A DNA stretch of 64,000 nucleotides from Candidatus Accumulibacter conexus (GTDB lineage: Bacteria; Pseudomonadota; Gammaproteobacteria; Burkholderiales; Rhodocyclaceae): positions 1-64,000 of the forward strand of contig JAGFNJ010000028.1 of NCBI GenBank assembly GCA_017592775.1, given 5' to 3'. Shown piece by piece: positions 40,783 through 58,776 of this stretch. The position numbers and the translations under genes are program-made. The notes beneath the pieces were generated by a model. That model had not been told where the DNA came from. It made no database searches and saw only the letters and a program-made list of their open reading frames with translations. The first letter of the stretch is position 1. Each line of letters opens with the position of its first letter.

Positions 40783-41293
40783 GGCAGGGCGCGTCGCTGG
40801 TCGGTGCGCTGTCAGTGAGTCCAGGGCGCGGCCCCTTTGCGACCTCTGCCTGCCGTTCGCCGACCCGCCTGTCCGGGATTTTCTGTCGCTCGTGGCGCCC
40901 ATCCTCGCCTGCTCACGCTAGTCTGTTCACCAGCTCGGCGAGCGCGCGTGCAGGCGCCGCGCGAAGCGGCAACCGCCTGCCCGCAGTGCCGGGCAGCGAA
41001 GGAAGCACGGCTGCAGGTGTCGGTTTTTTTTACACTTCCTGCCACCAGAACGGGCCACGGCCGATTCAGGATATGCTACGACAATGATTTACTGCAAGAT
41101 TGTCTCGTCCCAAAAGCCGTGGCACATAACTTGCTTGAATCGGAGAAGAAAGGCAGAGGGTCACCGGCGGCGACGCCCGAGTGGCCGTCATTGCGGGCTT
41201 TCCCGGCGAAGCGTGATGTAGTGGGCAAACATCTGTGAGCCGGAACGTCTAAAATGAGTTTGCTCACGCCGAAATCGACACCAAGGAAAGCAC
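40783..41293. other. intergenic region ahead of the HPr-rel-A cassette
   Basis: About 510 bases with no convincing gene. It contains an eight-T run near 41024-41031 without a clear stem before it, and a TGT-N11-ACA arrangement around that run. The sigma-54 promoter of the next cassette is in its right part. Confidence 0.5.
41120..41134 (+). promoter_or_regulatory. sigma-54 -24/-12 promoter of the HPr-rel-A cassette
   Basis: TGGCACATAACTTGC is a perfect match to TGGCAC-N5-TTGC. Predicted transcription begins about 150 bases before the first gene. In PEP-CTERM organisms the sigma-54 activator PrsR controls exopolysaccharide and sorting genes, so PrsR rather than NifA is the likelier activator. 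That is inference. Confidence 0.75.
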
Positions 41294-41674
41294 ATGTCAG
41301 AGACCTCAAACGAGAGAACCGAGCAGCGGCGCAAGCTGCTCAAGAAGGCCGCGGCCGTGCCGGCGATCTTCGTTCTGCCATCCACCGGCAGGGCCGTGGC
41401 GAGCAGCAGTCTGCACGCCTGCGTGGAGAAGGGCCTGATAGCGAACAACAACAACCCGATTCCGCCGATCCTGCCCAAGGACCAGACGGACCAGTGGGTG
41501 CGGCAGTACCAGACAGGCATTGACCAGGGAGCGGACACCACGGTCTCAGGCAACGTCCTGCAGTACGACTACACCACCGGCACCGTACCAAGGCCGGTGG
41601 CGCACGCGTCGTGCTGGAACTCGATCAATCCGACCGGACCACAGGCGGATCCGAATACCAACCTGATCCCGTAA
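41294..41674 (+). CDS. small exported-looking protein heading the HPr-rel-A cassette
   Basis: A 126-residue protein of unknown function. The N-terminus is basic with RRKLLKKAAAVPAIFVLPS, resembling a twin-arginine or simple export signal but with a short hydrophobic core. The mature part has only two cysteines (SSLHACVEKG and ASCWNSINPTG) and is rich in Asn, Gln and Pro. It is the first gene after a sigma-54 promoter and precedes a PqqD-like gene. PqqD-like proteins commonly present peptides to modifying enzymes, so this may be the cassette's substrate. That role is inferred from order only. Confidence 0.7.
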   Translation: MSETSNERTEQRRKLLKKAAAVPAIFVLPSTGRAVASSSLHACVEKGLIANNNNPIPPILPKDQTDQWVRQYQTGIDQGADTTVSGNVLQYDYTTGTVPRPVAHASCWNSINPTGPQADPNTNLIP

Positions 41675-41719
41675 TCGGCCACGCGCGGCAAGCCCCGGAC
41701 CGCGTACGCCCGCAGCCTG

Positions 41720-41971
41720 ATGCAACCCCTTTTTCGCCGGCTCGGCGAAGGTGCAGTCGCTTTTGATCAGAGGAACTGGCAGACGCACATTCTCACCCCG
41801 GCTGCCGCGGTCATCTTCGAGGCACTGGGCGAGATCGGCGACGGCGAACAGCCACTGCCCCTGAACCGGGCGCTGCGCTTCCTGCGCGACGAACTCGAAG
41901 TCGACACCGACACCCCGGAAATCCGCCAGGTGTTGCGTTCTCTGCAGGAGATGGGCATGCTTGGCGGATGA
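41720..41971 (+). CDS. PqqD-like peptide chaperone of the HPr-rel-A type
   Basis: An 83-residue PqqD-superfamily protein. ILTPAAAVIFEALGEIGDGE and the C-terminal EIRQVLRSLQEMGMLG fit the small winged-helix fold that binds leader peptides in RiPP-like systems. It overlaps the HprK-related gene by 4 bp. The name reflects the family found together with HprK-related kinase A. Confidence 0.78.
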   Translation: MQPLFRRLGEGAVAFDQRNWQTHILTPAAAVIFEALGEIGDGEQPLPLNRALRFLRDELEVDTDTPEIRQVLRSLQEMGMLGG

Positions 41972-42912
41972 CTGCCGAGCCGCTCCGACTGCGCAACTTA
42001 TCTCCCGTCATCCTCCGCCAGCGTCTTGCCAGTGCTTCGGTCGCGCTCGACTACGGCGCAGCGGTGGTGCGCGTCGGCTCCGACCTCGGCGGCTTCGTGA
42101 CCGATCTGCAGCGCGTCTATGGCGCCTTTTCGCTGGTCGACGCCGACTTCGCCGACTTCCATACCCAGGTCCGCCGCGGCAAGGGAGTACGCGCCTACCT
42201 GCGTCCGCAGTCCCGTTTCCTGATTGACGGCGTGCAGCCCTTCGACCCCTTTCCCCAGGAGCAGGCGCTGGCGCACTTCGAGTGGGGCGTCAACTGGTGC
42301 TTTGCGCAGCGCTTCAACCAGCACGTCCTGCTGCACGCCGGTGCCTTGGCGCTCGCCGACCGCGGCATCATCATGGCGGCGCCGCCCGGTTCCGGCAAGA
42401 GCACGCTGACGGCGGCGATGATGCTGCGCGGCTTCCGCCTGCTGTCCGACGAATTCGGCGTCCTCTGCCCGCGCAGCGGCCAGTTGTGGCCAATGCTGAA
42501 GCCGCTGGCGCTGAAGAACCGCTCGATCGACATCATCCGCGACTATGCCGACGACGTCATCCTCGGCCCCGTCTACAAGGGCACCCGCAAGGGCGACGTG
42601 GCACACCTCGCTCCCGGTGAGGAAAGCGTCGACGCGCGTCGGCAGCCGGCGCGCCCGCAGCTGGTCATCTTCCCCACCTTTCGCCCGGGTGCAGCATTGG
42701 CCGCCCGCCGCCTGCCGCCCGAACAGGCCTTCGCCCACCTCGCCTTCAACAGCTTCAACTACGAGTTGCTCGGCGCCACATCCTTCAACGCCGTGGCCGA
42801 TGTCATCGACAACTGCCCTGCCTTCGCGCTCGAGTACAGCCGCCTCGATGAGGCGATCGAAGCGGTCCGCATGCTGCTTGCCGACGCGACGGCGACGGGG
42901 AACGCCGCATGA
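41968..42912 (+). CDS. HprK-related kinase A
   Basis: A 314-residue relative of HPr kinase/phosphorylase. The P-loop is AAPPGSGKSTLTAAMMLRGF (about 135-154), followed by the metal-site LLSDEFGVL and a conserved KPLALKNRSIDIIRDY. The HPr-binding K4 loop of true HprK is not obvious. Family members occur beside PqqD-like and nucleotidyltransferase genes, frequently in PEP-CTERM genomes. The phosphorylated partner is unknown. It overlaps genes on both sides by 4 bp. Confidence 0.85.
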   Translation: MTAEPLRLRNLSPVILRQRLASASVALDYGAAVVRVGSDLGGFVTDLQRVYGAFSLVDADFADFHTQVRRGKGVRAYLRPQSRFLIDGVQPFDPFPQEQALAHFEWGVNWCFAQRFNQHVLLHAGALALADRGIIMAAPPGSGKSTLTAAMMLRGFRLLSDEFGVLCPRSGQLWPMLKPLALKNRSIDIIRDYADDVILGPVYKGTRKGDVAHLAPGEESVDARRQPARPQLVIFPTFRPGAALAARRLPPEQAFAHLAFNSFNYELLGATSFNAVADVIDNCPAFALEYSRLDEAIEAVRMLLADATATGNAA

Positions 42913-44015
42913 GCAACCAGCAACCCGCTGCCGACCCGTTCTCCCTGTTGCAACTCCTGCGTGACCCCGGACGGGTGCGTGACCTGCAGTTGCACGACTG
43001 GGATGCGCTGATCCGCCTGGCACGCCGGGCGAGGCTGCTGGGCGTGCTCGCCCATCGCATCCAGTCGCAAGCCGAGCACCTGGCTGCCGTTACCGACTGC
43101 GTTCGTGGCCACCTCGATTCGGCGACCATCTATTCGGCGCATCGCGTCCACCTGCTGCGCATGGAGTTGGCTGCGCTGGCCCGCGTGCTGCCCGCCGACG
43201 TGCGCGTCGCCGTCCTCAAGGGCGGTGCCTACATCCTCCAGGACCTCGTGACGGCACGCGGTCGGCTGCCGAACGACGTCGACCTGCTGGTCAGCCGCGA
43301 CGACCTGCGGCGCTGCGAAGCGGCCCTGCTTGCCGCGGGATGGGAGTCAGAAGCGGTGGACGACTATGCCGACCGCTATTACCGCGAATGGAGTCATGAA
43401 CTGCCGCCGCTGCGCTTTCCCGGGCACCCGATGGAAGTCGACCTGCATCACACGATCAGCCCGGTCACCGGTCGCCTGCGGCCGGACCGGGCTCTGCTCT
43501 TCGCCGACCTGCAGGAAGTTGCCGGGCAGCGCTTCCTGGTGTTGCATCCACTCGACCAGATCCTGCACGCCGTCATCCATCTCTTCCAGGACTCCGAGCT
43601 GGTCGACAACCTGCGCGACCTCGTCGACATCGACAGTCTCCTGCGGACCCACCTGCAGTCGAACGAGGACTGGCTGGCACTGACCAGGCGCGCCAGCCGA
43701 CACGGCGTCGAGCGTCCATTGTGGTACGCCCTGCACTACTGCCGCCTCTGGCTGGCGACGCCGGTGCCCGACGGACTGCCGCTGCGCCCGCCGCCGGTCG
43801 CCATGGTGCGTCTGATGGACTGGCTCTATCCGCGCTGCACGCTGCCCCGACTGCCCGACCGGTCGCCGACGATCGCCCGCCGAATCGCCGTCCGCCTCGG
43901 CCTGGCCCGCTACCAGTGGCTGCGCATGCCGCCCGGACTGCTGCTGCGCCATCTCGGTCACAAGAGCGTGCAGGCGCTGCGCTGGCGCCCGGCGGCGCAA
44001 CGCGGGGCCGACTGA
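42909..44015 (+). CDS. nucleotidyltransferase-fold protein of the HPr-rel-A cassette
   Basis: A 368-residue protein of the uncharacterised nucleotidyltransferase family (NTP_transf_5). The core reads VAVLKGGAYILQDL, then RLPNDVDLLVSRDDLRRCEA, giving the D-x-D metal pair, followed by MEVDLHHTISP. The rest is helical. Family members often accompany sugar or peptide modification systems. The substrate is unknown. It overlaps the HprK-related gene by 4 bp, so all four genes probably form one operon. Confidence 0.85.
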   Translation: MSNQQPAADPFSLLQLLRDPGRVRDLQLHDWDALIRLARRARLLGVLAHRIQSQAEHLAAVTDCVRGHLDSATIYSAHRVHLLRMELAALARVLPADVRVAVLKGGAYILQDLVTARGRLPNDVDLLVSRDDLRRCEAALLAAGWESEAVDDYADRYYREWSHELPPLRFPGHPMEVDLHHTISPVTGRLRPDRALLFADLQEVAGQRFLVLHPLDQILHAVIHLFQDSELVDNLRDLVDIDSLLRTHLQSNEDWLALTRRASRHGVERPLWYALHYCRLWLATPVPDGLPLRPPPVAMVRLMDWLYPRCTLPRLPDRSPTIARRIAVRLGLARYQWLRMPPGLLLRHLGHKSVQALRWRPAAQRGAD

Positions 44016-44636
44016 GAGGGAGTCGCGCACGCGGATGACCCCGTGCGTCCGCCGCCGCGGCGATCGCGAGCTTCGCGGCGCGCGGCGAGGATCGCTCTCG
44101 CCGTCCGCTGCCGCCCACCGCCAGGACCGGCATCGATCGGCAGCCCCGACTCGCGGCGCGTGCCAGGCGGCGGCGCTCCTGGTCAGCCCGCGGCCGTCCT
44201 GAACCGCCCAGCCACGGCCCGCCCCAGCGACCGCCCGCTGCCAGCACCGCTAGCGCGACCCCACGGAAGTCCACCGCCTCGCCGCGACCGTTGCTGCGCG
44301 CCTTGCAGCTTGCGATCCGCTGCCGCCAGCGCAACGGACCAAGTGCCGGAAAGCACGTCCTGCCGTGCGGTAGTTCATAACAGCCACTCGACTTGCAGGC
44401 AGATACTCCACCTGCAAGTCGAGTCGCTCAAACACGGTCGTCATTGCCGCAGAAGACTCAGCCAGCCGCCTTCCCCGCCTCGCACGCGGGTTGGGACAGC
44501 CTGCACGCCGGGCCTGGCACTGACCTCGTCACTGCCCTGACCGCCGTCGCCTGGCTTGCTGCACTTCACCACCAACCATGGAACTGACCACCGAATGGAT
44601 GACATCACCGAACAGGCCCCTCGCAAGGATCGAGCC
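44016..44636. other. intergenic region before the PEP-CTERM gene
   Basis: About 620 bases with no full gene. It holds a striking 14-bp inverted repeat, listed separately. On the reverse strand around 44330-44444, MTTVFERLDLQVEYLPASRVAVMNY resembles the start of a GyrI-like effector-binding domain but soon breaks down, so it may be a remnant. Confidence 0.4.
44386..44424. repeat. perfect 14-bp inverted repeat
   Basis: Arms ACTCGACTTGCAGG and CCTGCAAGTCGAGT flank an 11-base spacer. There is no T-run, so a terminator is unlikely. It lies about 210 bp upstream of the PEP-CTERM gene and could be an operator or a mobile-element scar. Confidence 0.7.
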
Positions 44637-45536
44637 ATGACACGCCGTCGCGCCGGCACCGGTGTCGTCCGGCGCTTCCTGCCGGCCATGCTGGTCGGCC
44701 TGGCCGGCATCGCCGCCGTCGCAACCGGTGCCGGAAACGCCAACGCCGGCGTGCTGCACAACGGCTGGAACTACGCCATCGACTCCTTCAACGATGGCTC
44801 TGGCGGCAGCGGTTTCGAGGAGCGCGGCCTCGCCTTCCGCCAGATCGGCCAGACAGGCCACTTCGCCATCAGCGGTGACATACCGTTGACGGGCACGCCA
44901 TACGCCTCCGCCCGCAACGGCAGCGTCGCGCTGGGCGACCTGTTCATCAACTTCTCGTCCAACAAGCTCGACGCACAGGGCAAGTTCACCGACCCCGCGG
45001 TCTTCGGCATCCGCTTCAGCGACAGGAACGATTCGTTCGGCAACATCAACGGCAGCAATACCACCCTCGGCCTGTTCCGCAACATCACCGTGGTGGACCT
45101 GGCCGCGCCGCAGAATGGCGGCTACAACACGCTGCAGGCCTACTACAACGCCGGCTTCGGCCGCCCGACCCGGAGCATGGGCGACCGTGACACGACGACC
45201 GACGTCATCAGCTACCTCGGCAACGGCGACATGTACGCCAACATGGCGAGCGGCACGCTCGTCGCCGGCATCACGTCGCTGAGCGCCGCCGACCTGGGCA
45301 ACCTCGGGCTCGACTTCGCCCATTTCGGGTCGGGAGCAGTCGGCACCGCGCCGCTCATCGGTTTCTCGGTCGACCTGTCGGCACTGCCACGCGGGCAGTT
45401 CGCGGCCCACTTCTTTGAGGAATGCATCAACGACGGCATCGCGCTGCGCGGGCAGGTCGTGCCCGAACCAGGCAGCTTCACGCTGCTGGGCATCGCGCTC
45501 GCCGGCGTCACAGCCTGTCGCCGGCGCAAGGGCTGA
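44637..45536 (+). CDS. PEP-CTERM sorting domain protein
   Basis: Exported surface or exopolysaccharide-associated protein, 299 residues. The signal peptide (MTRRRAGTG through GNANA) has an AAGGATCG ribosome site. The mature part is a beta-rich domain with repeated NG/DG loops. The C-terminal sorting signal reads VPEPGSFTLLGIALAGVTAC followed by RRRKG: the PEP motif, a hydrophobic helix and a basic tail recognised by exosortase. No exosortase is in the window. An upstream ATG at 44595 is possible but has a weaker ribosome site. Confidence 0.9.
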   Translation: MTRRRAGTGVVRRFLPAMLVGLAGIAAVATGAGNANAGVLHNGWNYAIDSFNDGSGGSGFEERGLAFRQIGQTGHFAISGDIPLTGTPYASARNGSVALGDLFINFSSNKLDAQGKFTDPAVFGIRFSDRNDSFGNINGSNTTLGLFRNITVVDLAAPQNGGYNTLQAYYNAGFGRPTRSMGDRDTTTDVISYLGNGDMYANMASGTLVAGITSLSAADLGNLGLDFAHFGSGAVGTAPLIGFSVDLSALPRGQFAAHFFEECINDGIALRGQVVPEPGSFTLLGIALAGVTACRRRKG

Positions 45537-45863
45537 CAGGAAGGCGCGGGCAGCACCACCACGCCGGCGTCGCGGGATGCCGTGAGCAGGGCAAAGCGCC
45601 ACGCCGCGAGGCAGTCGCTGCCGACCAGCCCTAGCCATTGCCGAGCAGGCTGCGCAACCTGTCGCAACCCGCCGGGTCGCCAACCGCGCTGTCAGCAGTG
45701 CCTGCGGCCAGCTCGTCCGCCACCGCCTGCTCGCGGTTGAACAGGCGGGCACGGTCGACGGCGCCGATGTTGCGAACGCTGCTGCCTGCAGAAATTGCAG
45801 TCCCGTGAGGTCCATCCGGGAACCCCTGCGGGCGGACTGGCCGGGTAGTCGCCGGCGCCAAGT
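45537..45863. other. intergenic, no gene recognised
   Basis: About 330 bases between the PEP-CTERM gene and a toxin remnant. Open frames here lack family resemblance and ribosome sites. Confidence 0.5.
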
Positions 45864-45992
45864 CCAGGTCTCCTGGATCAGGGGCGCGGCGAGCTGCGCG
45901 CAATGCCGGCGACTCCTGTTGGTGACGAGGACCGCGCCGGCGGACCGGCCGGCGATCATCCCGTCCACTTCGCCGATCGCCCGCCCCCGTTC
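45864..45992 (-). pseudogene. C-terminal remnant of a VapC-like PIN toxin
   Basis: The reverse frame reads RGRAIGEVDGMIAGRSAGAV, then LVTN and, shortly after, LIQETW. This matches the end of PIN-domain toxins, which have a conserved Asp after IG, a small-residue helix, LVTNN and a final W. The N-terminal half with the other catalytic acids is missing. The large STAND gene ends just beside it, at the position where the missing half would be, suggesting insertion of that gene into an older toxin locus. Confidence 0.4.
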
Positions 45993-46027
45993 TGGTGAGT
46001 TGGTGACGGATTGCGGCGGACCATTTG

Positions 46028-49000
46028 CTACTTCAGCGTACCAGGAAGCCAAGGCGCGATGGCGTACTCAAGAACTCTGCCACCGAATAAGCGCTGCGAC
46101 ATGTCTCTGGTCCACTCTGAAAGCTGCCTCGAATGGCCGTGGCAGGGAGGCAATCTCCCGACTCTTGCAAGCTCGATGCCCTCATGGTCCTGGCTGTCGA
46201 TCATTCGTTCCAGATCCTGAAACCCTCTCGGGTGACTCAAGTACTCGAACAGAAATGCGCCACGTGCTCTGGCGACGGGGTTCTCAGAGCGGACCGCATC
46301 CGCTAGCCAGTGTCTCTGATCCCGTCCGCGATTGAGGTACTGCCACGACATTTCAGCCAGCTGGTGGTACCACGATTGGCGGTGGCCGCACACGCGACTC
46401 TCCATCTCGGCGAGCCCGACACCGTTGTCGTCGAGTGCAGACGTCATGAGCAGGGCAATGGCTCGTCCCCTCGGCGAGTTCGATGCAAACTCTTTCTTCG
46501 CTTCCTCCAGCAACCAATCGCTGTTGACCACTGCAATCGCGTTCAGCACTCGGTACAGATCGAGGTCACTCTGCTGCGCCCCGATCAATCGACGCCACCG
46601 GCGCTGTATCTCGGAGCCGGGTCGGGCCTTGGCAAGCGCGGCGTGTCTGCGAAGAAGCCTCGTGCTGCTGTCCCAGTACCGTACCACAGGGGCCGCTTCT
46701 TCCAGCTGATCGAACCACTGCAACGCTGGCGCGCAGCCTGCCGAAAGCCCCCATTCGAGGGCGGCTTCGACAAGCGCCGAGATCGCGGGCAGCTTCCCGC
46801 ACCTTGCCGCCCGGCTGAACAGGCAAGCAAGGTCTGACAGAGCAGACGGCACTGCCTCTATGAGCAATCCGATCGCCTCGCCGGGGATGTACGCGCCATA
46901 GAGCCACACCCCTGATGCGTGTGCCTCGGCGAGAGCTGCATCAAGTGTGTCGCGCTCCGTCGCGCTTGCGTAGTCATCGTCGGAGAACAGTGCCCGGAGG
47001 TCTCCGATGGGGAGACCTCCCCAGATGGATAGCGGACTGACCATGGAATAGCGTCGCCTCTCTCGCCTGGGGGCCGAGACGCGGATCCAGGGGGCATCGA
47101 ACCTGTCTCTCAGAACGTCCATTGCAGCTGATGGCGATTGATTTTGGGCAAGTGCCCCCGTCGCCGCTCCATGGAGAAGCTCAGCGAAAAAGGGAACCCA
47201 CCGGCGAGCCATGGCGCGCGGAACCGCAACCAAGGCCTGCCCCATGAACGCGGGCGACACGAAAGTCTGCGCCTGTGCGGTCGGCGATTCGTCGCGGATG
47301 GTGGCGAGTGTCCGCCAGTATCGCTCCAACTGTGTCTCCTGACACTGCCAATCGATCTGGTGCATGCCTACGAGTCGCATGCCTTCGCTCTTTTCCAGCC
47401 GAAGTGCGACCTTCAGTGCCAGCCCACGAGTAGCCGAGTCACTGCTCGCCATGGCCGCCTCTGCCAGAAAGAAGGCGGTGCTCGGCTCCAGCTCTCGCTG
47501 AGCGCTCAGGAACCAGAGTGCGAGCTGCAACGTTCCAGCGTCACCCCTCCAGCATTTCAGCGCCTCTTGCTGCACCGGCGCCAGTTGCTTGAAGTGCAGC
47601 GACATCGCACGGGGCTGGGCAGCCTTTGCCCCTCGCCAGCGCAGGAATTCCAGTTGCTCGGGCCCGGACAGGTGCTCTAGCAGAGCCTGAGCGAACTGCG
47701 ATTCGACGAAACACGCGTCCGGCAGGTCGGCCACGAGGCTCTGGCAGATTCGGCACCACGTCTCACGGACTGCCGAAAGTGCGTTGGCATCAAGCAGCGT
47801 AGAGAACGCCTGAATGCCGAAGGACGCTTGTCGGAGAGGCAGCCCAGAGCGATTGCGGCAGTCGAGCGCGATACGGCGAACGAGGCGAGCGACTGCGTCG
47901 GGTGCCAAGCGAAAACCGAGTGGCAGCAATTGCTCGAGCTCGCAGTCGGCGTCACCTTTGCCCATGTCCCGCCACAGACGCGAAGCGTCGATAGCGTCGA
48001 GGGCTGTCGCTATCTGGGCTGCAAACACGTCCGGAAAGGGGAAAGTGCGATCGGCTGCGAATACTCTGCCACGGCTGACTTTCAGGTATTGCGGTACATC
48101 CTCGCGCGCGAGGCAGCCGGGAAGCTCGCGGACGCTTGGAGCGCGAAAGAAGGCCCTGCAGGAGTCCATCTCTTCCTCGATGCTCGCCAGCCGGTTGACC
48201 GGGAAGTGCTCCTTGGCGATCGCGTCGAGCCTGGGTAGCAGCGCTTGACTGCCAAGGATGGAGATCATGCGCTGGGCCGCGCGACAGCAAACTGGGTCCG
48301 TATCGGCAAGCAGTGCAGAGGTGGTTCGATCCACCAAGTCATCGATGGGCTCGTGGGCCCCGCGAATGAGCCAGGCCAGCAGTTCGGTTCTGGGCCCTTC
48401 CAACGCCTGGTCTGCCACGAACGCCGTCACGACGACGTGCCAGTACGCTCGAAGGCTGCACGCGGACACGGCCGCAATGGCCAGCCTGCCCAAGCGCAAC
48501 GCGGGCTGCCGCTCCTCGCGCGCCAGAGTGACCTTCGAGACCGGGAAGTCGCACTTTGAGGAGCCACACAATCGGTTGACATCCGGAACAACCGCGCAAG
48601 GCCTGTCGCCAGCGTGATGCTCGGACTCGCCGTTTTCGTGCACCAAGCCGGCCCACTGGACGAGACGATCCAAGCACACCGGCAGATCAGCCTCCGCGCG
48701 CATGATCCGGACAAGAGCCGACAGGACGGCTTGCTCCATGACGTGGGCGCTCCCGCCGTGGCGCCAGTGGTAATCGGCAAATCCCAGCAGCAGTTCGGCC
48801 GTGATCTGCAGTCGTGGCAGCGACTCACCCAGCTCGTTTGCCGAGTTGAGCGTGTTTGCCCACACGCTCAACAATGCAACCTGGGCATCCTGGCTGTACG
48901 GCGGGTCCGAAAACAATGAATGGAGCAAGGCATGCTGGAAGACACTTGTTGTGAGGTCCACCGCCACCGTGTCCGCGAGGACACCTTCGGCTGCTGCGCA

Positions 49001-50710
49001 GCGAGTTTCAACAGTTCCTTCCTCCTGCTCAACTCGATCAGCCAGGTACATACCCAGCCCGAGTGCGAAATACTCGCGCTTGAGACGCCAGCCATCGGCC
49101 ACACGTTCGATAATGCCGGTAGAGGCCAACTCCTCCTGCCGCTGCGCGAACTTCTCGACGCCAAGTGCGGCTTCCATATGCGGCAGGAGAATGTGGTGGC
49201 TGACGCGCTGGTCCCTCGCAAGACTCCGAATGGCGTCGGCGAACCCGGTGCCATCGATCGCCATGCCACGCTTCAGGGACTCCCGATGCTGCCAGTCGAA
49301 GTAGTAGAGCGTTTCGGCGGTCAGCTCTTCGCCAGGCGGGAGGCTGGCTACTTGCTGCAGCGCCAGGTGAAAGAAGCGTGGTCTGCGTACCAGAGATCCA
49401 GCCGATCGAATGGCCTGCTGATGCGCTCGGGGCAACTCACTTATCGCCTGCTCGAATTCCGCTTCGCTGAAGTCACCCACCTCAATGGGGGAGAACTTGA
49501 AGTGGAGTTGCCTGCTGAAGCGGTCTTTCCAAGTCTTCGACCGACATGTGACGATCAGGAAGACGGTCGCCAGACGACTTGAATTCAGCTCTTCGATGAG
49601 ATCTGCCCACAGAGCAGCTTCGGGCCTTTCGTTGATACCATCAAGCACGACCACCGCCCGCTTGCTACTTGCAGGGACACCGACATGCAACCAGCGCTGA
49701 AGCTTCCTCTGCACCGACAGGTCTGTTGACCGTGCCAAGACGAACTGCCGCGCGTGCTTGGTTAGCACGTGCATGACTTCTTTCGAATCTGGCTCCCCTG
49801 CCGGGATGAAGAACACGGCAGGAGCGTTGCCGGTCTTGACAAGCCCACGTATCCAGTCGGATACGACCCAGGACTTGCCAGTCCCTTCGTCGCCGAGAAC
49901 CAAGACTGCGCCAACCGCGCCGTCGGCGTCAGAGGCGTGCCACAACGCCTGCAGTTGACGAAGGCTCTCACCACGTCGCTGCGGGATGGTTGGTGCATGC
50001 AGCGCAGCAGGTGTCAACGCGCAGCGAAACCGCCGCTTGCACGCTGCCGGATCGCTGGAATCCTCGACGAAGCATTCGTTGAGCCGGTCGACAAAGGGCC
50101 GAAAGCCGATGTCGGCGCTGCACAACTCGCTCTTGAGCGCATCCAGGGTTTGCCCGTACTGTCCACGAGCCCTGACCTCAGACACCGCCTGTCGAAAGTC
50201 GGCAACGAGCACACCGTTGCCTGCCTTTTCGAGGTAGGCTACCGCGCTGTCCTCGTAGGCAGCACAAAGCACGTCAAGGTATCCGAAGCTCGGAGATTGC
50301 ATGGTCGCGAGACTCAGGTATGCAATGCCGCGCTCGTTGCAGGCTTGCGAAAGGGTGTCATCCGCCTGCGTCGTGATCTCGCGACTGGTGACCAGGACCC
50401 AGCAGTCCAGTTCGGCGTTGCGCGAGCACGCCACCTCAATCGCGGTTCTCAAGGACTGCTCGCTCAGTGGCGTCGAATCGCCATAACGCTTGCATTCGAC
50501 AGCAACTTGAATGTCATCGCGTCTCAACGTAGCCGCATCAAGGCCCCCCTGCAACCCTGAGGCTGCAAGCGCAAGTCGTAACCCCGTGGCTTGTCGCAGC
50601 AGTGTTACAACCAGCCCCTCAAAGCCGTCCCATCCAGTGGGGCGCAGGCGCTGGAGAACCATCTGCAGGCTCTTGCCCGAAGGCTCACTTGTATTCTTCG
50701 TCTTGGACAT
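46028..50710 (-). CDS. giant Mrr-nuclease / STAND NTPase protein, candidate Avs-type antiviral defence
   Basis: A single 1,560-residue protein. Residues about 15-130 form a restriction-endonuclease-like domain: GWDGFEGLVVTLLRQ, then GGLDA with Asp 58, and VAVECKRY with Glu 72 and Lys 74, the D...ExK catalytic set of Mrr-like nucleases. Residues about 240-560 form a P-loop NTPase with Walker A LGDEGTGKS (273-280) and Walker B RAVVVLDGINER (Asp 357). The remaining thousand residues are alpha-helical with no known domain, consistent with a repeat-type sensor. This order (effector, STAND, long sensor) is that of antiviral STAND proteins. The start MSKTKNTSE was preferred over upstream frame. It has no operon partner. 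Confidence 0.82.
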   Translation of the reverse strand: MSKTKNTSEPSGKSLQMVLQRLRPTGWDGFEGLVVTLLRQATGLRLALAASGLQGGLDAATLRRDDIQVAVECKRYGDSTPLSEQSLRTAIEVACSRNAELDCWVLVTSREITTQADDTLSQACNERGIAYLSLATMQSPSFGYLDVLCAAYEDSAVAYLEKAGNGVLVADFRQAVSEVRARGQYGQTLDALKSELCSADIGFRPFVDRLNECFVEDSSDPAACKRRFRCALTPAALHAPTIPQRRGESLRQLQALWHASDADGAVGAVLVLGDEGTGKSWVVSDWIRGLVKTGNAPAVFFIPAGEPDSKEVMHVLTKHARQFVLARSTDLSVQRKLQRWLHVGVPASSKRAVVVLDGINERPEAALWADLIEELNSSRLATVFLIVTCRSKTWKDRFSRQLHFKFSPIEVGDFSEAEFEQAISELPRAHQQAIRSAGSLVRRPRFFHLALQQVASLPPGEELTAETLYYFDWQHRESLKRGMAIDGTGFADAIRSLARDQRVSHHILLPHMEAALGVEKFAQRQEELASTGIIERVADGWRLKREYFALGLGMYLADRVEQEEGTVETRCAAAEGVLADTVAVDLTTSVFQHALLHSLFSDPPYSQDAQVALLSVWANTLNSANELGESLPRLQITAELLLGFADYHWRHGGSAHVMEQAVLSALVRIMRAEADLPVCLDRLVQWAGLVHENGESEHHAGDRPCAVVPDVNRLCGSSKCDFPVSKVTLAREERQPALRLGRLAIAAVSACSLRAYWHVVVTAFVADQALEGPRTELLAWLIRGAHEPIDDLVDRTTSALLADTDPVCCRAAQRMISILGSQALLPRLDAIAKEHFPVNRLASIEEEMDSCRAFFRAPSVRELPGCLAREDVPQYLKVSRGRVFAADRTFPFPDVFAAQIATALDAIDASRLWRDMGKGDADCELEQLLPLGFRLAPDAVARLVRRIALDCRNRSGLPLRQASFGIQAFSTLLDANALSAVRETWCRICQSLVADLPDACFVESQFAQALLEHLSGPEQLEFLRWRGAKAAQPRAMSLHFKQLAPVQQEALKCWRGDAGTLQLALWFLSAQRELEPSTAFFLAEAAMASSDSATRGLALKVALRLEKSEGMRLVGMHQIDWQCQETQLERYWRTLATIRDESPTAQAQTFVSPAFMGQALVAVPRAMARRWVPFFAELLHGAATGALAQNQSPSAAMDVLRDRFDAPWIRVSAPRRERRRYSMVSPLSIWGGLPIGDLRALFSDDDYASATERDTLDAALAEAHASGVWLYGAYIPGEAIGLLIEAVPSALSDLACLFSRAARCGKLPAISALVEAALEWGLSAGCAPALQWFDQLEEAAPVVRYWDSSTRLLRRHAALAKARPGSEIQRRWRRLIGAQQSDLDLYRVLNAIAVVNSDWLLEEAKKEFASNSPRGRAIALLMTSALDDNGVGLAEMESRVCGHRQSWYHQLAEMSWQYLNRGRDQRHWLADAVRSENPVARARGAFLFEYLSHPRGFQDLERMIDSQDHEGIELARVGRLPPCHGHSRQLSEWTRDMSQRLFGGRVLEYAIAPWLPGTLK

Positions 50711-50860
50711 TGTTGTGTCGGATGTGCTGGAGGATACGGTTCGGGGACGCAGATAACAGGATACTCCCGCCACATGGCTGAGGCACTCTGACCAACATGT
50801 GCCTCCACGACCCGGCAGGCCAAGAGGTTGCGCCGGCCTGCTTCTGGTCAAGTTTCCGTT

Positions 50861-51763
50861 TCAGCTCGACCCCGGCGGCAGCAACCCGCGCAGCGTGGCT
50901 CCGCCCGGATAACGCAGGTCGTCAACCCGCCAGTTGGAACCCTCGCGCAACAGCAGCACCTCCACCTCCCAATCCCGCGAGCCGTCGCCGAACCGGATGG
51001 GAACGCTGGCGCGCGTGCCATCGATGCGCGCACGTCCCGCTACGAAGCGTTCGGGGTATTCCTGCGAATCGGTGAAGGGGTCGCCGTTGATCGGCGGCGC
51101 CTCGTCCTGCGGCCGCGGCCGCTTGAACCAATCGGCGATGGCGCCGCGCAGGCCAGCCGTCAGGTAGGCGCGCTTGCGCGCGACCGAGGCGGGATTGAAA
51201 GCCATGTCGCCGGTCATGTGGCGACGCAGCAGGTCCACCGTCGTCGCCTCGGGCGAGTCCGCTGCCGCGGCGCGGGTCAGCGTCCACACCACGTTGTCGA
51301 GACCGAGCAGCGCCCTGCCGGATGCGATCAGGTGGTAGTCGAAGATTCCACCGTCGCAGCTCACCCGCAGGCTCAGCAGCGGCAGATGCGCGATCCCGAG
51401 CGCGCGCGCGGCCTGCTCGGCGGGCGGCGGCAGGCTGCCCTGGAACAGACCCGGCGCCGGCGTCAGGACGAATTCGTAGCGCGCCACCGCACAGGCGAGC
51501 GGCTCAGGCCCTTCGACCCGCTTCGCGGTGAAGCGCAGCGACTTGCCCGCCAACCCGCGATCCGGCGGCAGGCTGGTCTTCGCCGGCGCCCAGGGCGCGA
51601 CCACGCCGCGCTCGATGTGCCACTCCGCCTGCGGCGGCCAGGCCTCGAAAGCCCCGACGCCGTGCGACGCCAGGAACAGGAATGACGCCACGACCGTGCA
51701 CCGGACGCCACGCCAGCGCCGCGGCAACGCACGCGGCAGTGCACCGCCTCCGCCATTCCTCAT
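50861..51763 (-). CDS. exported protein of unknown function, DUF3828-like end
   Basis: A 300-residue protein with a signal peptide (basic start, then TVVASFLFLASHGVGAF) and an AAGGAG ribosome site. The mature part has paired cysteines (ACAVARYEF, RVSCDGGIFDY). The C-terminal 100 residues, with PFTDSQEYPERFVAGRARI and WRVDDLRYPGG, resemble DUF3828 lipoproteins. Probably periplasmic. Its function is unknown. Confidence 0.72.
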   Translation of the reverse strand: MRNGGGGALPRALPRRWRGVRCTVVASFLFLASHGVGAFEAWPPQAEWHIERGVVAPWAPAKTSLPPDRGLAGKSLRFTAKRVEGPEPLACAVARYEFVLTPAPGLFQGSLPPPAEQAARALGIAHLPLLSLRVSCDGGIFDYHLIASGRALLGLDNVVWTLTRAAAADSPEATTVDLLRRHMTGDMAFNPASVARKRAYLTAGLRGAIADWFKRPRPQDEAPPINGDPFTDSQEYPERFVAGRARIDGTRASVPIRFGDGSRDWEVEVLLLREGSNWRVDDLRYPGGATLRGLLPPGSS

Positions 51764-51976
51764 CGTCGGACTCCTTTCGCCATCCCCATCGAGCAGCGGA
51801 TAATAACCCGGACGGTTCCGGCTTCCGGCGCCGTAAAGCCGGCGCACTGCCGGGCCAGCCCCCCTCCCGCGGCGCCGCATCACCGCACGGGGATGTTGCG
51901 GCACGGACAAGCGGCCGGCCCGATGATCCACATTCGACTGCATTCCGGGCAGTCTGCTCGGGTAGCGGGAGACGCC

Positions 51977-52858
51977 ATGCTGGACAAGAACCTGTTGTTC
52001 GTGACCCTCCCCCTCCTGCTCGTTTCGGGGCTGGCGCTGGTGAAGGGCATCGCTCGGCTGATCGCGGCATCACGGGTCGACGAGCTGGCGAAACTGCCGC
52101 TCGCCAGCGGCGGGACGGTGGACATCCGGGAAGCGGGAGAAGTGGTTCTTTCGCTGCGTGGCAAGATCGGCAGCACGGCCTTCGCCGGGGCATCGTTCGC
52201 CTTGCACGACGCCGCCGGCAAGGCGGTGCCGTCACGCATGATCGTGGCCCGTTCGCTGCGCTCGGGCCTGGACGGCGAAACCACCCTCGCCGTGCGCCGC
52301 TTCGCGATCCCCGCGCCGGGCCGGCATCGGCTGCAGGCCTCGGGCTTCGACCCGGAACGGATCGACGGCAACAACCGCCTGGTGCTCGCCAGGCCCGGCG
52401 GCACGCCGCTGATCCTGAGCGTGCTGTGGGTGGTGACCGCCGCGATCGCGTTGCTCGCCAGCCTCGTCTTCTCGGCCTTTTCGGCCTTCGCCCAGCCGGC
52501 AGCGGCCGGCGTTTCGGTGCCGGCCGTGGGCAGCCCCGCGCGCACCGCGATCCTCGACGCGGTGCGGAGCGAACTGCGACTGGCCAGCGACGGCGGTAGC
52601 CGGTTCAAGGTCTTCCACCTGAAGACCGCCGGCGCCTGGGCCTACTTCGAAGGCAACGAGATCGTCCACGTCGCGGGTCGCGAGTGGCAGGAGACCGATC
52701 TGACGGTGAAGGCCCTGCTGCGCGAGGAGGACGGGCGCTGGCGGGTGCGCGCACTGTGGAGCCTGCCCGGCAACGAACGCCTGCCGCTGCGGCAGTTCGA
52801 GCGCCGGATCGGCGACTTGCGGGCGCGCTGGCAACTGCCGGCAGGGCTGCTTCCGTAG
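51977..52858 (+). CDS. membrane protein of unknown function
   Basis: A 293-residue protein with an N-terminal membrane helix (LLFVTLPLLLVSGLALV), an extracytoplasmic beta domain (about 30-150), a second helix (LSVLWVVTAAIALLASLVFS near 155) and a C-terminal soluble part ending in an Arg/Leu-rich stretch. The last part (FKVFHLKTAGAWAYFEGNE, WQETDLTVKALLREEDGRW) looks like a small DUF3828/NTF2-like module, similar in style to the divergent neighbour. A GGGAG ribosome site supports the start. Confidence 0.7.
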   Translation: MLDKNLLFVTLPLLLVSGLALVKGIARLIAASRVDELAKLPLASGGTVDIREAGEVVLSLRGKIGSTAFAGASFALHDAAGKAVPSRMIVARSLRSGLDGETTLAVRRFAIPAPGRHRLQASGFDPERIDGNNRLVLARPGGTPLILSVLWVVTAAIALLASLVFSAFSAFAQPAAAGVSVPAVGSPARTAILDAVRSELRLASDGGSRFKVFHLKTAGAWAYFEGNEIVHVAGREWQETDLTVKALLREEDGRWRVRALWSLPGNERLPLRQFERRIGDLRARWQLPAGLLP

Positions 52859-52904
52859 GCGATCATGCAAGCGGGCGAGCGGGCGACGGATGGAGGGCGA
52901 GGCG

Positions 52905-53705
52905 ATGAGGGCAGCAGGGCAGCGGCATTCGCGGGGCATGCGGGCCAGCGACCGGTGGCGCCGCGGAATGGCGGCGGTGGCGATGTGGATGGCGGCGGTG
53001 GCGATGTGGATGGCGGCGGTGGCGGCACTGGCGGCTGAACCGAGCGTGCAGCAAGCCCTCCTCAAGGCGATCGCCGCGGGCGACGTGGACGCGGCGCGTG
53101 CGGCGGTGACGCGCGGCGCCGACCTCAACGCCGCCGGCCCCTTCCAGCGCACGCCGCTGCACGCGGCCGCCAAGGGTGTGGCCACGCCCCTCCTCGAATG
53201 GATGCTGGCGCAGGGCGTGAACCCGGACGCGCGTGATGGCGATGGGCGAACGCCGCTGCATCTCGCCAACCAGACATCGGCGGTGATTCTCCTGCGCCAC
53301 CAGGCGGACGCACGCCTCACCGACCGCCAGGGCAACACCGCCCTGCATGTCGCCGCCGAAGACAGCCGGGGAATGTGCCGGCTGCTCGTCCAGGCCGGCG
53401 TGCCGGTGAACGCCCGCAACGCGTCCGGCCTCACTCCCCTGCATTTCGCCGTACTGGCGGGCAAGACGCAGGTCGCCGAAGAACTCGTCGCCCTGGGCGC
53501 CGACGTCAACGCGCGGACGGTCGCCGGGTACTCGTACAAGCCGTCCTTCGTCGGCTGGGACGTGCAGGGCATGGAGAGCGGCGTGCCCGCCGGCGCGACA
53601 CCGGTCTCGCTGGCGCATCAGCAGCACCGGAAGAACCGATGGGTGAGTGGCGACCGCTACGCGGAACTGGCCGAATACCTGATCAGCAAGGGCGCCGTGG
53701 AATGA
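52905..53705 (+). CDS. exported ankyrin-repeat protein
   Basis: A 266-residue protein with a signal-like hydrophobic N-terminus made of a repeated MAAVAMW unit. It is followed by about five ankyrin repeats (RTPLHAAAKGVATPLLEWML, RTPLHLANQTSAVILLRH, NTALHVAAEDSRGMCRLLV, LTPLHFAVLAGKTQVAEELV). Likely periplasmic and involved in protein contacts. A GGAGGGCGAGG ribosome site favours the drawn start; Met codons lie 15 bases upstream and inside the hydrophobic part. Confidence 0.78.
   Translation: MRAAGQRHSRGMRASDRWRRGMAAVAMWMAAVAMWMAAVAALAAEPSVQQALLKAIAAGDVDAARAAVTRGADLNAAGPFQRTPLHAAAKGVATPLLEWMLAQGVNPDARDGDGRTPLHLANQTSAVILLRHQADARLTDRQGNTALHVAAEDSRGMCRLLVQAGVPVNARNASGLTPLHFAVLAGKTQVAEELVALGADVNARTVAGYSYKPSFVGWDVQGMESGVPAGATPVSLAHQQHRKNRWVSGDRYAELAEYLISKGAVE
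52968..53030 (+). repeat. three tandem 21-bp units inside the ankyrin gene signal sequence
   Basis: The unit ATGGCGGCGGTGGCGATGTG(G) occurs twice exactly and a third time with changes at its end. It encodes MAAVAMW repeated. Copy number changes would lengthen or shorten the signal helix in steps of seven residues without shifting the frame. Confidence 0.75.
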
Positions 53706-53783
53706 AGCGCGTTCGTGCGCGACGTGGAGACCAATGCTTGCACGCGATATCGGGCCCTGCTACGCTTCTGGTCACACAGATGA

Positions 53784-54034
<251 letters not shown>

Positions 54035-54035
<1 letters not shown>

Positions 54036-54073
54036 TGCTGTACCTCGAGCGCGGGCGTTTGCCACCCCGCTGA
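54035..54073 (+). pseudogene. remnant of the cognate toxin start
   Basis: The frame MLYLERGRLPPR begins at an ATG overlapping the antitoxin stop, in the usual toxin position, then stops. MLYL is a common VapC start. No further PIN motifs were found in the following 150 bases. Confidence 0.35.
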
Positions 54074-54184
54074 CCACATGTCCCGTTGGCAGTTGCCAAC
54101 ACGGATCGCTGGACCTGGCCGGAGATCCTGCCGCGCCGGCCCATCCTCCTGCCTGGACACCCCTGCCGCCGCCAGTGATTCCGC

Positions 54185-54592
54185 TCAAGCTCCTGCAGCA
54201 CGCCGCCGGCGCGCGGCCCACCATGCCAGCGGCGCGGCGAGGAGAAAGGCCACTCCCTGCAGGACGGGTGTCAGGACGACGCCGATGGCGCTCTGCGCGT
54301 CCGGGTGCCAGTAGATCGCATCCACCAGCACGTAGAGGCCGCCGACGACCACCAGCGCGACGGCAACACACCACGGCAGCACGGGTTGTCCGCGGCGCTG
54401 CAGGGCGAGCAGCAGCCCCGCCAGCGCCGCATGCGGCACCGTCAGCCAGAGCACCAGGAACGCAAACGCGCCGGCGCTGGTCGGCTGCAGCTTGACGACG
54501 AAGAAAAGCGAGACGCCGACGCCCGCCAGGAGCACCAGCAGGGTCAGCCGCAGCGGCCCGCTTGCCGACCGCGCCGCCCCATCAGCCGCCAT
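54185..54592 (-). CDS. four-helix membrane protein of unknown function
   Basis: A 135-residue protein with four predicted membrane helices (about 15-35, 42-63, 72-92, 103-125) and a basic C-terminal tail WWAARRRRAAG. It overlaps the end of the following META-like gene by 11 bp, suggesting that the two are co-transcribed. No family is recognised. Confidence 0.65.
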   Translation of the reverse strand: MAADGAARSASGPLRLTLLVLLAGVGVSLFFVVKLQPTSAGAFAFLVLWLTVPHAALAGLLLALQRRGQPVLPWCVAVALVVVGGLYVLVDAIYWHPDAQSAIGVVLTPVLQGVAFLLAAPLAWWAARRRRAAGA

Positions 54593-55718
54593 ACACCAGC
54601 GGCTCGGGAATCTCGAAGTGCTCCTCGCCGTTGAAGCTCACCCGCCAGCCGCGTTCGTTGCGTGTGAAGCTCATCGCCTGCGGTGCGTCCGCCGCCTTCG
54701 GCTCGCCCTTGACGAAGAGGATGCGCCGCTGGCGGTCGCCATCCCAGCGCAGCTCGACCGTCGCCGTGCCGTCGAAGCCGCGCCGCACGACCAGAGCCTC
54801 GCAGGTGCGCGCCTGCGAGTACAGCGGTTCGCATGGCGTCGTCGTACTGGCGTGATGGCGGGTACCGGGCAGCACGGCATCGGTCGCCGCCGGCACCGGC
54901 TTGAGCGGTGTTCCGGTGACGCCGATCGACAGCGTGAAGTCGCTCGCCTCGTTGCGGCGCGCGGCTGCGCGGTACAGGAACACGCGAATCGTGTAGACGC
55001 CGTCATCCGGCAACAGTCCGTCGAAGCGGTTGCCGATCTGCTCGCCGATCGCCATCGCTGCATCGCGCGACGCGGGCGGCAGCAGGTTGAAGTAGGTCGC
55101 GCCGTTGCTGGCCTTGAGGCTCACCGTCATGCGCTGGCCGGCACCGGCGAGCAGTTCGTGGTCAATGTACTGGCGGCCGACGATGCGCTCGCGAAGCACG
55201 GCCGAACTGCTGCCCTTGCCAAACTGCACGCGCCTGACGATGCGCTCGCTGTCCCCGGCGGCGGCGGCGCCGGTCATCGGTCGCAGCGGCGCCCACTCGT
55301 AGATGCCGCCGTCGGCCAGCAGCGAGAGGTAGAGCTTGCCATCCTTGAGCAGGTACGAACGGACATGCACCAGGTCGCGCGCGATGCGCTCGTCGAGATG
55401 CGGCGGCGGGCACATCGCGCGCGTCGCGGCGATCGGGCCAAATGTCAGCGCGCCGGACGACCCGTCGCCGGCCGCTTGCACCTGGTAAGTACCGTTGCCG
55501 CGGTTGCAGTCGAGGCGCAGTGCGGCACGCCCGTCGCGCCCGAACTCGAGCCTGAATCGGCCCGGCTCGTGCACGCGGGTGGTGCCCTGTGCGTCATCCA
55601 TCGACTGGATGGCGAGCAACTGCCACGACGTTCCCGCCAGTTCGTAGCCGCCCGCGATGGCGACCGCCGGCAAGGCGGCCAGCAGCAGCCCGCCGATCAA
55701 CGAATGCCGGCCGCTCAT
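54582..55718 (-). CDS. exported protein with META/HslJ-like domain and a shared C-terminal domain
   Basis: A 378-residue exported protein. The signal peptide ends near AVAIAGG. Residues about 25-140 (LAGTSWQLLAIQSMDD, LRLDCNRGNGTYQV, MCPPPHLDERIARDL) match the META/HslJ family. A middle beta domain (GQRMTVSLKASNGATYFNLL) resembles inhibitor or pre-peptidase domains. The last 85 residues, from CEPLYSQARTCEALVVRRG to FEIPEPLVYGG, are similar to the end of the next upstream gene. It overlaps that gene by 4 bp. Confidence 0.75.
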   Translation of the reverse strand: MSGRHSLIGGLLLAALPAVAIAGGYELAGTSWQLLAIQSMDDAQGTTRVHEPGRFRLEFGRDGRAALRLDCNRGNGTYQVQAAGDGSSGALTFGPIAATRAMCPPPHLDERIARDLVHVRSYLLKDGKLYLSLLADGGIYEWAPLRPMTGAAAAGDSERIVRRVQFGKGSSSAVLRERIVGRQYIDHELLAGAGQRMTVSLKASNGATYFNLLPPASRDAAMAIGEQIGNRFDGLLPDDGVYTIRVFLYRAAARRNEASDFTLSIGVTGTPLKPVPAATDAVLPGTRHHASTTTPCEPLYSQARTCEALVVRRGFDGTATVELRWDGDRQRRILFVKGEPKAADAPQAMSFTRNERGWRVSFNGEEHFEIPEPLVYGG

Positions 55719-56353: not shown

Positions 56354-56378
56354 GGATGTTCTCCCGGTCGATTGTGGT

Positions 56379-57197: not shown

Positions 57198-57394
57198 GAG
57201 GGTCTCCGGGTTGGTTCGCTGCGCCCGCCGGGTCTGGCGCCACGTAGGGAATGAATGGGCGCGCCATGATACCGCGGGTCATCCTGCGGATGAAGACTGC
57301 GGCACCGCGGTGGGCGAACAACAGCGTGACCCCCAGACCGGAACGACGCCGGCCTCCTGATGAACGGCGCACGCCACCAGGCCAACATCCGGCG

Positions 57395-57889: not shown

Positions 57890-58033
57890 CTGTTCCTCCA
57901 AGGAGAGACGGTCACCCGGATGCGGCGACCGAAGTCGGCATCGTAGCATGATGCACGGGAGCGCTCGCGCCACGCCTTCTCCGGCCTCGCTGGCCTTCTC
58001 TGGCCGTCTCTGGCCGTCTCTGGCGGCAGCGGC
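57890..58033. repeat. spacer with short tandem TGGCCGTCTC units
   Basis: The decamer TGGCCGTCTC occurs about three to four times with small changes around 57991-58024. No gene is seen. The units stand directly before the dnaE2-like remnant. Confidence 0.4.
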
Positions 58034-58664: not shown

Positions 58665-58670
58665 GGCGTA

Positions 58671-58766
58671 CTACTCCTTGAAATTCCTGGCCAGCTTGAT
58701 GGCCAACCGGATGTCCTTCGACTGGCTTGACTTGTCGCCCCCGAACAGCAGAAGCAACAGCCTGGT
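58671..58766 (-). pseudogene. C-terminal fragment of the RelE/HigB-like toxin
   Basis: The frame GTRLLLLLFGGDKSSQSKDI then RLAIKLARNFKE equals the end of RelE-superfamily toxins that precede such antidotes. The N-terminal two-thirds is missing and is replaced by the attC-like palindrome. The stop is 6 bp before the antidote start, the normal arrangement. Confidence 0.6.
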
Positions 58767-58776
58767 TCCGTGCGAG

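What the first reader, a model, noticed from the sequence alone, without database searches (positions are those of the whole stretch)
46028..50710. Single-gene Mrr-STAND giant, candidate new antiviral STAND (Avs) defence protein
Seen: an N-terminal D...ExK nuclease domain (Asp 58, Glu 72, Lys 74), a P-loop NTPase (GDEGTGKS; VVVLDG) and about 1,000 residues of helical C-terminus, in one 1,560-residue protein. Known: Avs proteins pair an N-terminal effector, often a Mrr-like nuclease, with a STAND NTPase and a long C-terminal domain that senses phage terminase or portal. Inference: this is a solitary Avs-like defence gene, possibly with a novel sensor domain, placed beside a broken toxin.
Basis: partly seen in the sequence, partly recalled or inferred. 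Interest (0 to 1): 0.88.

Follow-up and report, generated by a model that had tools for sequence, protein, structure and literature searches.

The report
Undescribed Avs-like phage-defence receptor family
The window carries one intact gene for a large protein built like a bacterial immune receptor (DNA-cutting part, switch part, long sensing part); its relatives in other bacteria often sit near antiviral genes, and what it senses is unknown.

Summary
In detail: window 46028-50710 (-) encodes 1,560 residues with D58, E72-x-K74, Walker A (K279), Walker B and a ~1,080-residue C-terminus. It belongs to a real family: in 49 aligned rows (P0001 and 48 relatives, several phyla) K279 is kept in 49, D58 in 47, K74 in 45. 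Relatives sit near defence genes more often than controls: 2 of 10 randomly drawn neighbour ORFs match PADLOC at 1e-10 against at most 4 of 100 controls, and 4 of 54 loci hold an Avs4-like gene nearby. One relative carries a TIR domain in place of the nuclease on the same core; another lacks the nuclease. Two near-identical pairs differ mainly in the effector end or in two sensor stretches. Nuclease and NTPase are related to Avs2; the C-terminus matches no Pfam family, PDB sequence, or the Avs2 and Avs4-like sets tested. Here the gene is a solitary insertion, unmatched in 24 congeners. Best reading: an Avs-like STAND receptor that degrades DNA after sensing a phage protein, outside the Avs models tested.

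The parts
46028..50710 (-). gene of the 1,560-residue nuclease-NACHT-sensor protein (ATG at 50710, stop included)
   Evidence: open frame; start agrees with relative L030; relatives of similar length
50201..50683 (-). N-terminal Mrr/PD-(D/E)xK-like nuclease, residues about 10-170 (E31, D58, E72, K74)
   Evidence: conserved residues; profile match to the Avs2 N-terminus, 70.5%, E 3.9e-5
49271..49927 (-). NACHT/STAND NTPase, residues about 262-480 (Walker A 273-280, Walker B 353-358, P444-R445)
   Evidence: Pfam NACHT 1.3e-6; K279, W281, D357, W368, P444, R445 in 49 of 49 rows; hhalign about 97% to Avs2 and to Avs4-like proteins
46031..49270 (-). long C-terminal region, residues 481-1560, inferred sensor
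   Evidence: kept in relatives incl. a TIR-bearing one; none of 38 rows covering 440-1560 has a Pfam match at E<=0.01; no PDB sequence match at E<=10
46811..47830 (-). fast-changing part of the C-terminus, residues about 961-1300, candidate ligand-contact region (inference)
   Evidence: among the lowest identities between P0001 and L030 and in a 27-row clade, and overlaps the two diverged stretches of the pair L045/L072; pairs L046/L047 and L063/L064 show no special drop there
45231..50860 (.). stretch containing the gene that is missing in two congeners; right edge at 50861 against G1128
   Evidence: G1128 (L090) matches window 38001-44043 and resumes at 50861, with 1.2 kb of other DNA between; G1136 (L091), whose locus is eroded in many places, matches up to 45230 and again from 51095 with nothing between

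Best explanation
It is a STAND-type innate immune receptor that works like an Avs protein: the C-terminal region binds a phage protein made during infection (inferred), the NACHT NTPase binds ATP and oligomerises (inferred from known STAND proteins and the invariant Walker residues), and the clustered N-terminal PD-(D/E)xK nuclease degrades host and phage DNA so that the infected cell dies or stops before phage release (inferred). Shown here: domain order, conserved catalytic and nucleotide-binding residues, purifying selection in related pairs, more defence neighbours than controls, replacement of the effector in relatives, and presence/absence of the gene between congeners.
For: Conserved nuclease and Walker residues. 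Nuclease and NTPase related to Avs2, NTPase also to Avs4-like proteins. Neighbours: 2 of 10 randomly drawn neighbour ORFs match PADLOC at 1e-10 (L038 PDC-M19B, L054 Gabija GajA); in all 7 of 21 singly reported neighbours match (also L005 HamA, L048 Dsr1, L036 MkoC, L040 DrmMI/type IIG, L043 PDC-M68A; part of these chosen for size or order); 100 control ORFs match 4 families with one ORF each, so at most 4 ORFs. Avs4-like genes within four ORFs in 4 of 54 loci (P0006 of that group matches NCBIfam Avs4 at 2e-33, far under its cut-off). L026 has TIR_2 (3e-13) where P0001 has the nuclease, while NACHT and C-terminus align (E 1e-29); L025 lacks the nuclease though its sister L013 has it. dN/dS 0.06-0.37 in most regions of five pairs. 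Gene inserted relative to two congeners and unmatched in 24 of 24; GC3 0.71 against 0.84-0.88 in six nearby genes.
Against: No phage-protection or ligand data. The window is not a defence island: 41 other window ORFs match 5 PADLOC families, one ORF each, and the two ORFs flanking the closest relative L030 have no match. Eight of the ten random neighbours have no match either. No curated Avs model covers the protein. GC3 is also low in some other window ORFs (0.50-0.64 at 58398-59250, 0.58 at 26712), so it is weak evidence of recent arrival. Fold of the C-terminus untested. Only 2 of 49 rows show another effector end, and L025's N-terminus is unidentified.
Confidence: 0.72

Rival explanations
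1. An NTP-dependent type IV-like restriction enzyme: the Mrr-like nuclease and ATPase act directly on foreign or modified DNA, the long C-terminus recognising DNA.
For: Mrr-like nuclease with a P-loop NTPase; restriction genes among neighbours of relatives.
Against: A TIR domain replaces the nuclease on the same core in L026, hard to reconcile with a DNA-cutting enzyme; the NTPase matches NACHT.
Confidence: 0.1
2. A STAND receptor of conflict other than phage infection, for instance plasmid or other mobile-element exclusion, or a death switch answering to host damage.
For: Relatives occur on plasmids (10 records, several near-identical) and one in an IMG/VR contig; nothing here identifies the trigger.
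Against: Named neighbours are anti-phage types; Avs1-4 are phage sensors by the literature (PMC12931631 passages).
Confidence: 0.14
3. By classification rather than mechanism: an ordinary member of the described bacterial NACHT (bNACHT) set, such as the nuclease-NACHT proteins bNACHT25/32. Not exclusive with the best explanation.
For: Pfam NACHT above cut-off and a PD-(D/E)xK N-terminus, as in bNACHT25/32 (PMC12169576 passages).
Against: bNACHT25/32 carry NCH1 C-termini; no Pfam model matches any of 38 C-termini here (whether Pfam holds NCH1 was not checked); of four further relatives scanned only L028 has a NACHT match, under the cut-off.
Confidence: 0.2

Closest known systems
Avs2 (AVAST type 2; PADLOC PDLC02164/02161/02163)
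   Same: N-terminal Mrr-like nuclease (hhalign 70.5%, E 3.9e-5), central STAND NTPase (97%), similar length (1,384-1,493 residues in the eight compared)
   Different: C-terminus not alignable (0.6%); the PADLOC match covers only NTPase residues 268-421
Avs4-like proteins (P0006, L107-L110; only P0006 was scanned, NCBIfam NF041815 Avs4 2e-33, under its cut-off)
   Same: giant STAND proteins of 1,668-1,809 residues; NTPase related (97%); found near family members in 4 of 54 loci
   Different: N-terminus (0.2%) and C-terminus (0.3%) not alignable
bNACHT25/bNACHT32 (bacterial NLR-related, clade 6)
   Same: PD-(D/E)xK nuclease at the N-terminus, central NACHT, C-terminal sensing region (PMC12169576 passages)
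   Different: their C-terminus is the described NCH1 domain; no Pfam domain is recognised here
Avs5 (Sir2-STAND)
   Same: tripartite effector-NTPase-sensor plan (PMC12931631 passages)
   Different: NADase effector, nSTAND3 NTPase, repeat-type C-terminus by that paper; no NCBIfam match to P0001

Membership tests
STAND NTPase superfamily | NACHT/STAND P-loop NTPase with Walker A and B in the middle of the protein | tested here: met
   Pfam NACHT 28.8 bits vs cut-off 26.7; K279 and D357 in 49 of 49 rows
STAND NTPase superfamily | variable N-terminal effector on a conserved core | tested here: met
   of 49 rows, TIR in L026 and an unidentified end in L025; L044's nuclease end lies in a separate frame piece; the rest carry the nuclease motif with single changes in L028 and L039
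Avs (AVAST) types 1-5 | match to a curated whole-length Avs model | tested here: not met
   PADLOC: only the Avs2 NTPase segment, 5.6e-6, besides a chance-level Cas11 match at 0.15; NCBIfam: none up to E 1
Avs (AVAST) types 1-5 | C-terminal sensor homologous to a known Avs sensor | tested here: inconclusive
   hhalign 0.6% to Avs2 and 0.3% to Avs4-like; but Avs2 vs Avs4-like is also 0.3%, so the test has little power; Avs1, Avs3 and Avs5 C-termini were not compared
Avs (AVAST) types 1-5 | activation by phage terminase or portal, nuclease-dependent protection | not testable with these tools
   needs experiment
Avs (AVAST) types 1-5 | occurrence among defence genes | tested here: met
   for relatives: 2 of 10 random neighbour ORFs vs at most 4 of 100 controls, Avs4-like gene in 4 of 54 loci, a small sample; the window itself no
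bNACHT proteins | NACHT module by Pfam | tested here: met
   P0001 above cut-off; of four further relatives scanned only L028 matches, under the cut-off
bNACHT proteins | placement in a described bNACHT clade / known C-terminal domain (NCH1, SNaCT) | tested here: inconclusive
   no Pfam match in 38 C-termini; clade sequences not available, and whether Pfam holds these domains was not checked
Mrr-type type IV restriction | catalytic D...(E/Q)xK of PD-(D/E)xK nucleases | tested here: met
   D58, E72, K74
Mrr-type type IV restriction | DNA-modification recognition domain | tested here: inconclusive
   no such domain matched in Pfam; no structure

The most novel reading that the evidence does not exclude
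The ~1,080-residue C-terminus is a sensor unrelated to those of Avs1-5 and recognises a phage protein other than terminase or portal, and the family changes its killing mode and its target by exchanging effector and sensor cassettes between gene copies; residues about 961-1300 carry the recognition surface.
Probability: 0.33. Interest if true: 0.78.

Novelty: new variant of a known kind. Interest (0 to 1): 0.6.

Why it matters
If right, it adds a widespread receptor family, with members in several phyla, to the known phage-sensing STAND proteins, with a sensor that none of the profile libraries tested recognises. The mosaic pairs (L045/L072 for the sensor, L048/L054 for the effector) give natural, nearly isogenic comparisons that could show which residues decide what is sensed.

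Tried and rejected
PDB search with P0001 alone: nothing up to E 1; the N-terminal profile gave only weak matches, best 0.0044 to a 'Gene 2 protein', a 1,523-residue 'AAA family ATPase' 9n00 at 0.03 and DARK at 0.17. Phage records: no match. Viral contigs: one relative only, L013, in four scans; L138 of the last scan is the same contig. Matches in 24 congeners: none. A toxin next to the gene: no Pfam or PADLOC sign in the ORFs scanned there. Search for an Avs5 model in 185 genomes of the class: two weak partial matches only. I did not find this family described in these searches, which does not exclude a description elsewhere.

Counts and rows. PADLOC lists families matched, not ORFs matched: 181 families by 97 neighbour ORFs and 250 by 91 against 4 by 100 controls. 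Neighbour ORFs were picked by a longest-ORF rule, not a gene finder; 188 of 283 listed ORFs were given, from 53 of 54 loci (L042 left out). Controls: 20 regions of 13 genomes; 8 of the 20 regions are from five genomes that hold family members, one of them on the same contig as L026. L037 and L053 were dropped as duplicates of L012 and L009; L041, L049, L051, L052 (split), L067 and L071 (cut at contig ends) were left out of the 49 rows; L044 entered with its longer frame piece only; L010 was not used. A6 left out L044. L117 was fetched and not used. The effector labels on the tree were set by me, not computed. One search had wrong coordinates for reverse-strand loci and was replaced.

Full report
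What is there. The minus-strand frame 46028-50710 encodes 1,560 residues. Pfam finds NACHT at 269-425 (E 1.3e-6, above the curated cut-off) and, just above its own cut-off, NPHP3_N in the same region. PADLOC finds the NTPase segment of Avs2 (best 5.6e-6) and a chance-level Cas11 match, NCBIfam nothing up to E 1, the PDB sequences nothing up to E 1. The start at ATG 50710 fits the 55%-identical relative L030.

The family. tblastn with P0001 found 10 plasmid records, of which three Manganitrophus and four Sphingobium records look like copies of one another, no phage record, and 3 of 369 genomes of the class including its own. An 8-row alignment (A1) showed E31, D58, E72, K74, the Walker residues, D357, N360, P444 and R445 invariant. 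With A1, 7 of 399 genomes of the order matched at E<=0.001 (own, two long matches, one 213-residue piece, three short matches) and 6 of 398 of the phylum (own, three long, two short). One scan of one genome per species gave 44 loci, from Pseudomonadota, Thermodesulfobacteriota, Planctomycetota, Myxococcota, Spirochaetota, Chloroflexota, Nitrospinota and Latescibacterota among others by record title and tree label; L005 is on a Nitrospirota plasmid. Of these 44, L041, L049, L051 and L052 are split, L044 probably too, and L067 and L071 end at contig ends. In 49 aligned rows (P0001 and 48 relatives, 1,423-1,632 codons stop to stop) G273, G276, G278, K279, W281, D357, W368, P444 and R445 are invariant; D58 is kept in 47, E72 in 45, K74 in 45. 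The exceptions are L025 and L026 (other effector ends; L026's D at 58 is fortuitous), L044 (row lacks that end), L028 (R74) and L039 (Q72). Part of this set was retrieved by patterns around these motifs, so the counts are biased upwards; A1 was not.

Relation to known systems. Local hhalign comparisons used 8 Avs2 proteins (two found with the PADLOC Avs2 model in G046; six plasmid relatives) and 5 Avs4-like proteins (P0006; only P0006 was checked against NCBIfam Avs4, E 2e-33, 115 bits against a cut-off of 1,500). The nuclease end matches Avs2 (70.5%, E 3.9e-5) and not Avs4-like (0.2%); the NTPase matches both (about 97%); the C-terminus matches neither (0.6% and 0.3%). The Avs2 and Avs4-like C-termini also fail to match each other (0.3%), so a shared fold is not excluded. 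No Pfam family matches any of 38 rows covering residues 440-1560 at E<=0.01, and that profile finds no PDB chain at E<=10.

Modularity. L026 carries TIR_2 (E 3e-13) at the N-terminus, while P0001 268-1467 aligns with its NACHT and C-terminus (1,258 columns, 22.8% identity, E 1e-29). In the FastTree it joins P0001 and L030 (support 93), but the program warns of long branches there. L025 has no nuclease, and tblastn with five nuclease ends found none elsewhere in its 9.7-kb contig, although its sister L013 (41% identity over the shared part) has one; L025's own N-terminus shows no Pfam match that would explain it (only a weak DUF6133 hit at 159-180, E 0.054) and no PADLOC match.

Selection and mosaics. 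dN/dS is 0.06-0.37 in most regions of the pairs L048/L054, L045/L072, L046/L047, L063/L064 and L059/L060; exceptions are 0.66 and 1.09 in the last two regions of L048/L054, where dS is only 0.01-0.02, and saturated regions (one in L063/L064, three of five in P0001/L030). L045 and L072 are 93-100% identical (nucleotides, 90-base bins) over P0001-equivalent residues ~270-790, fall to 52-61% in bins starting ~966-1058, return to 95-97% at ~1118-1146, fall to 68-71% at ~1294-1323, and are 96-100% from ~1444 on; in amino acids 168 of 267 match in 840-1110 and 106 of 157 in 1180-1420, against 67 of 71 and 141 of 144 in the stretches after each. L048 and L054 are 93-100% identical from residue ~190 to the end but 64-96% before it, and their flanks are 21-55% identical apart from the first bin behind the gene (92%), that is unaligned, so the gene sits in different places. 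Against a general rule: L046/L047 and L063/L064 show no special drop in 860-1310 (80% and 74% identity, about the gene's level). The stretch ~961-1300 is among the least conserved between P0001 and L030 (38-51% in bins 976-1300) and in a 27-row clade (31-47%), but residues 1501-1560 of that clade are as variable (32%). Reading the two pairs as exchange of effector and recognition cassettes is inference; three of the four genomes (all but L054) are MAGs, so assembly chimerism is not excluded.

Neighbourhoods. Of 10 neighbour ORFs drawn at random from the 188 used, 2 match PADLOC at 1e-10 (L038, L054). Of 100 control ORFs at most 4 match (4 families, one ORF each). The difference is in the expected direction but the sample of 10 is small. 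Over all, 7 of 21 singly reported neighbours match, nine of these 21 chosen by size or list order and two because they flank L030. The family tallies (181 for 97 ORFs, 250 for 91 ORFs) point the same way but are inflated by redundant models. Types seen include HamA, a SAVED/endonuclease effector, a reverse transcriptase, DrmMI/type IIG, type I specificity, AbiLi, MkoC, GajA, Dsr1 and four ORFs matching mad3. With my own profile, Avs4-like genes lie near the family member in L009, L034, L064 (same strand) and L047 (opposite strand), 4 of 54 loci. Plasmid records: L005 next to a SAVED protein, a DEAD/DEAH helicase and XamI restriction; L008 and L010 next to VapC, an AAA ATPase and RloB; L006 shows no such neighbour among its annotated genes.

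The window locus. Congener G1128 matches window 38001-44043 and most of 50861-57960 at 86-97%, with 1.2 kb of other DNA in place of 44044-50860. G1136 keeps pieces of the PEP-CTERM gene region (to 45230) and resumes at 51095 with no giant gene; its locus is eroded elsewhere too. None of 24 congeners has a match. GC3 is 0.71 in the gene and 0.84-0.88 in six nearby genes, though other window ORFs are lower still. L030's flanks do not match the window. The one tRNA of the window is at 26037, not near. The window itself is not a defence island: 41 other ORFs match five PADLOC families, two of them DndA/SspA, which I take, from recall, for an ordinary cysteine desulfurase.

Mechanism. Shown: architecture, conserved catalytic and NTPase residues, purifying selection in related pairs, more defence neighbours than controls, effector replacement, presence/absence between congeners. 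Inferred from known STAND proteins (tripartite plan and nuclease-driven cell death of Avs1-4, PMC12931631 passages; nuclease-NACHT bNACHT25/32, PMC12169576 passages): ligand-driven oligomerisation and DNA degradation. Unknown: the ligand, the fold of the sensor, and whether this copy protects.

Verdict. Real, intact, not chance; works most likely like an Avs protein; not a member of Avs1-5 by the curated models tested; a new variant of a known kind.

Noticed in passing
window 58398-58664 (-) and about 58674-58772 (-): A HI1420-type addiction-module antidote gene (Pfam 3.6e-13) preceded by what looks by eye like the C-terminal remnant of its toxin partner (the resemblance is recalled, not tested).
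   Followed up: partly
L009:2475-7679, L034:14701-19944, L064:4592-9715, L047:12826-17997: Avs4-like giant genes beside members of this family, on the same strand in three of four: a recurrent pair of STAND receptors.
   Followed up: partly
L027:12640-16326 and L026:2304-7739: Other giant neighbours: one with a weak match to RT-Protease models and weak similarity to this family's NTPase, and an alpha/beta-hydrolase-CHAT-TPR-S protein beside the TIR-bearing relative.
   Followed up: no
L043:1282-5754: A 1,491-residue neighbour a few bases upstream of a family member, whose first ~110 residues match PDC-M68A and HNH effector/SAVED_HNH models.
   Followed up: no
L029:836-1474 (+): A stand-alone 213-residue piece of the nuclease end (45% and 49% identical to L027 and L009) near a contig end, about 5 kb from genes that read like glmS and glmU (names recalled from their sequence).
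   Followed up: no
L028:7790-12493 (-): A full-length relative with Arg in place of the catalytic Lys (EARRY instead of ECKRY), possibly inactive; L039 has Gln for Glu72.
   Followed up: no
window 41968-45536 (+): A run of genes with a weakly HPr-kinase-like protein, an NTP_transf_5 nucleotidyltransferase and a PEP-CTERM protein; the first two lie in DNA kept in congeners G1128 and G1136.
   Followed up: no
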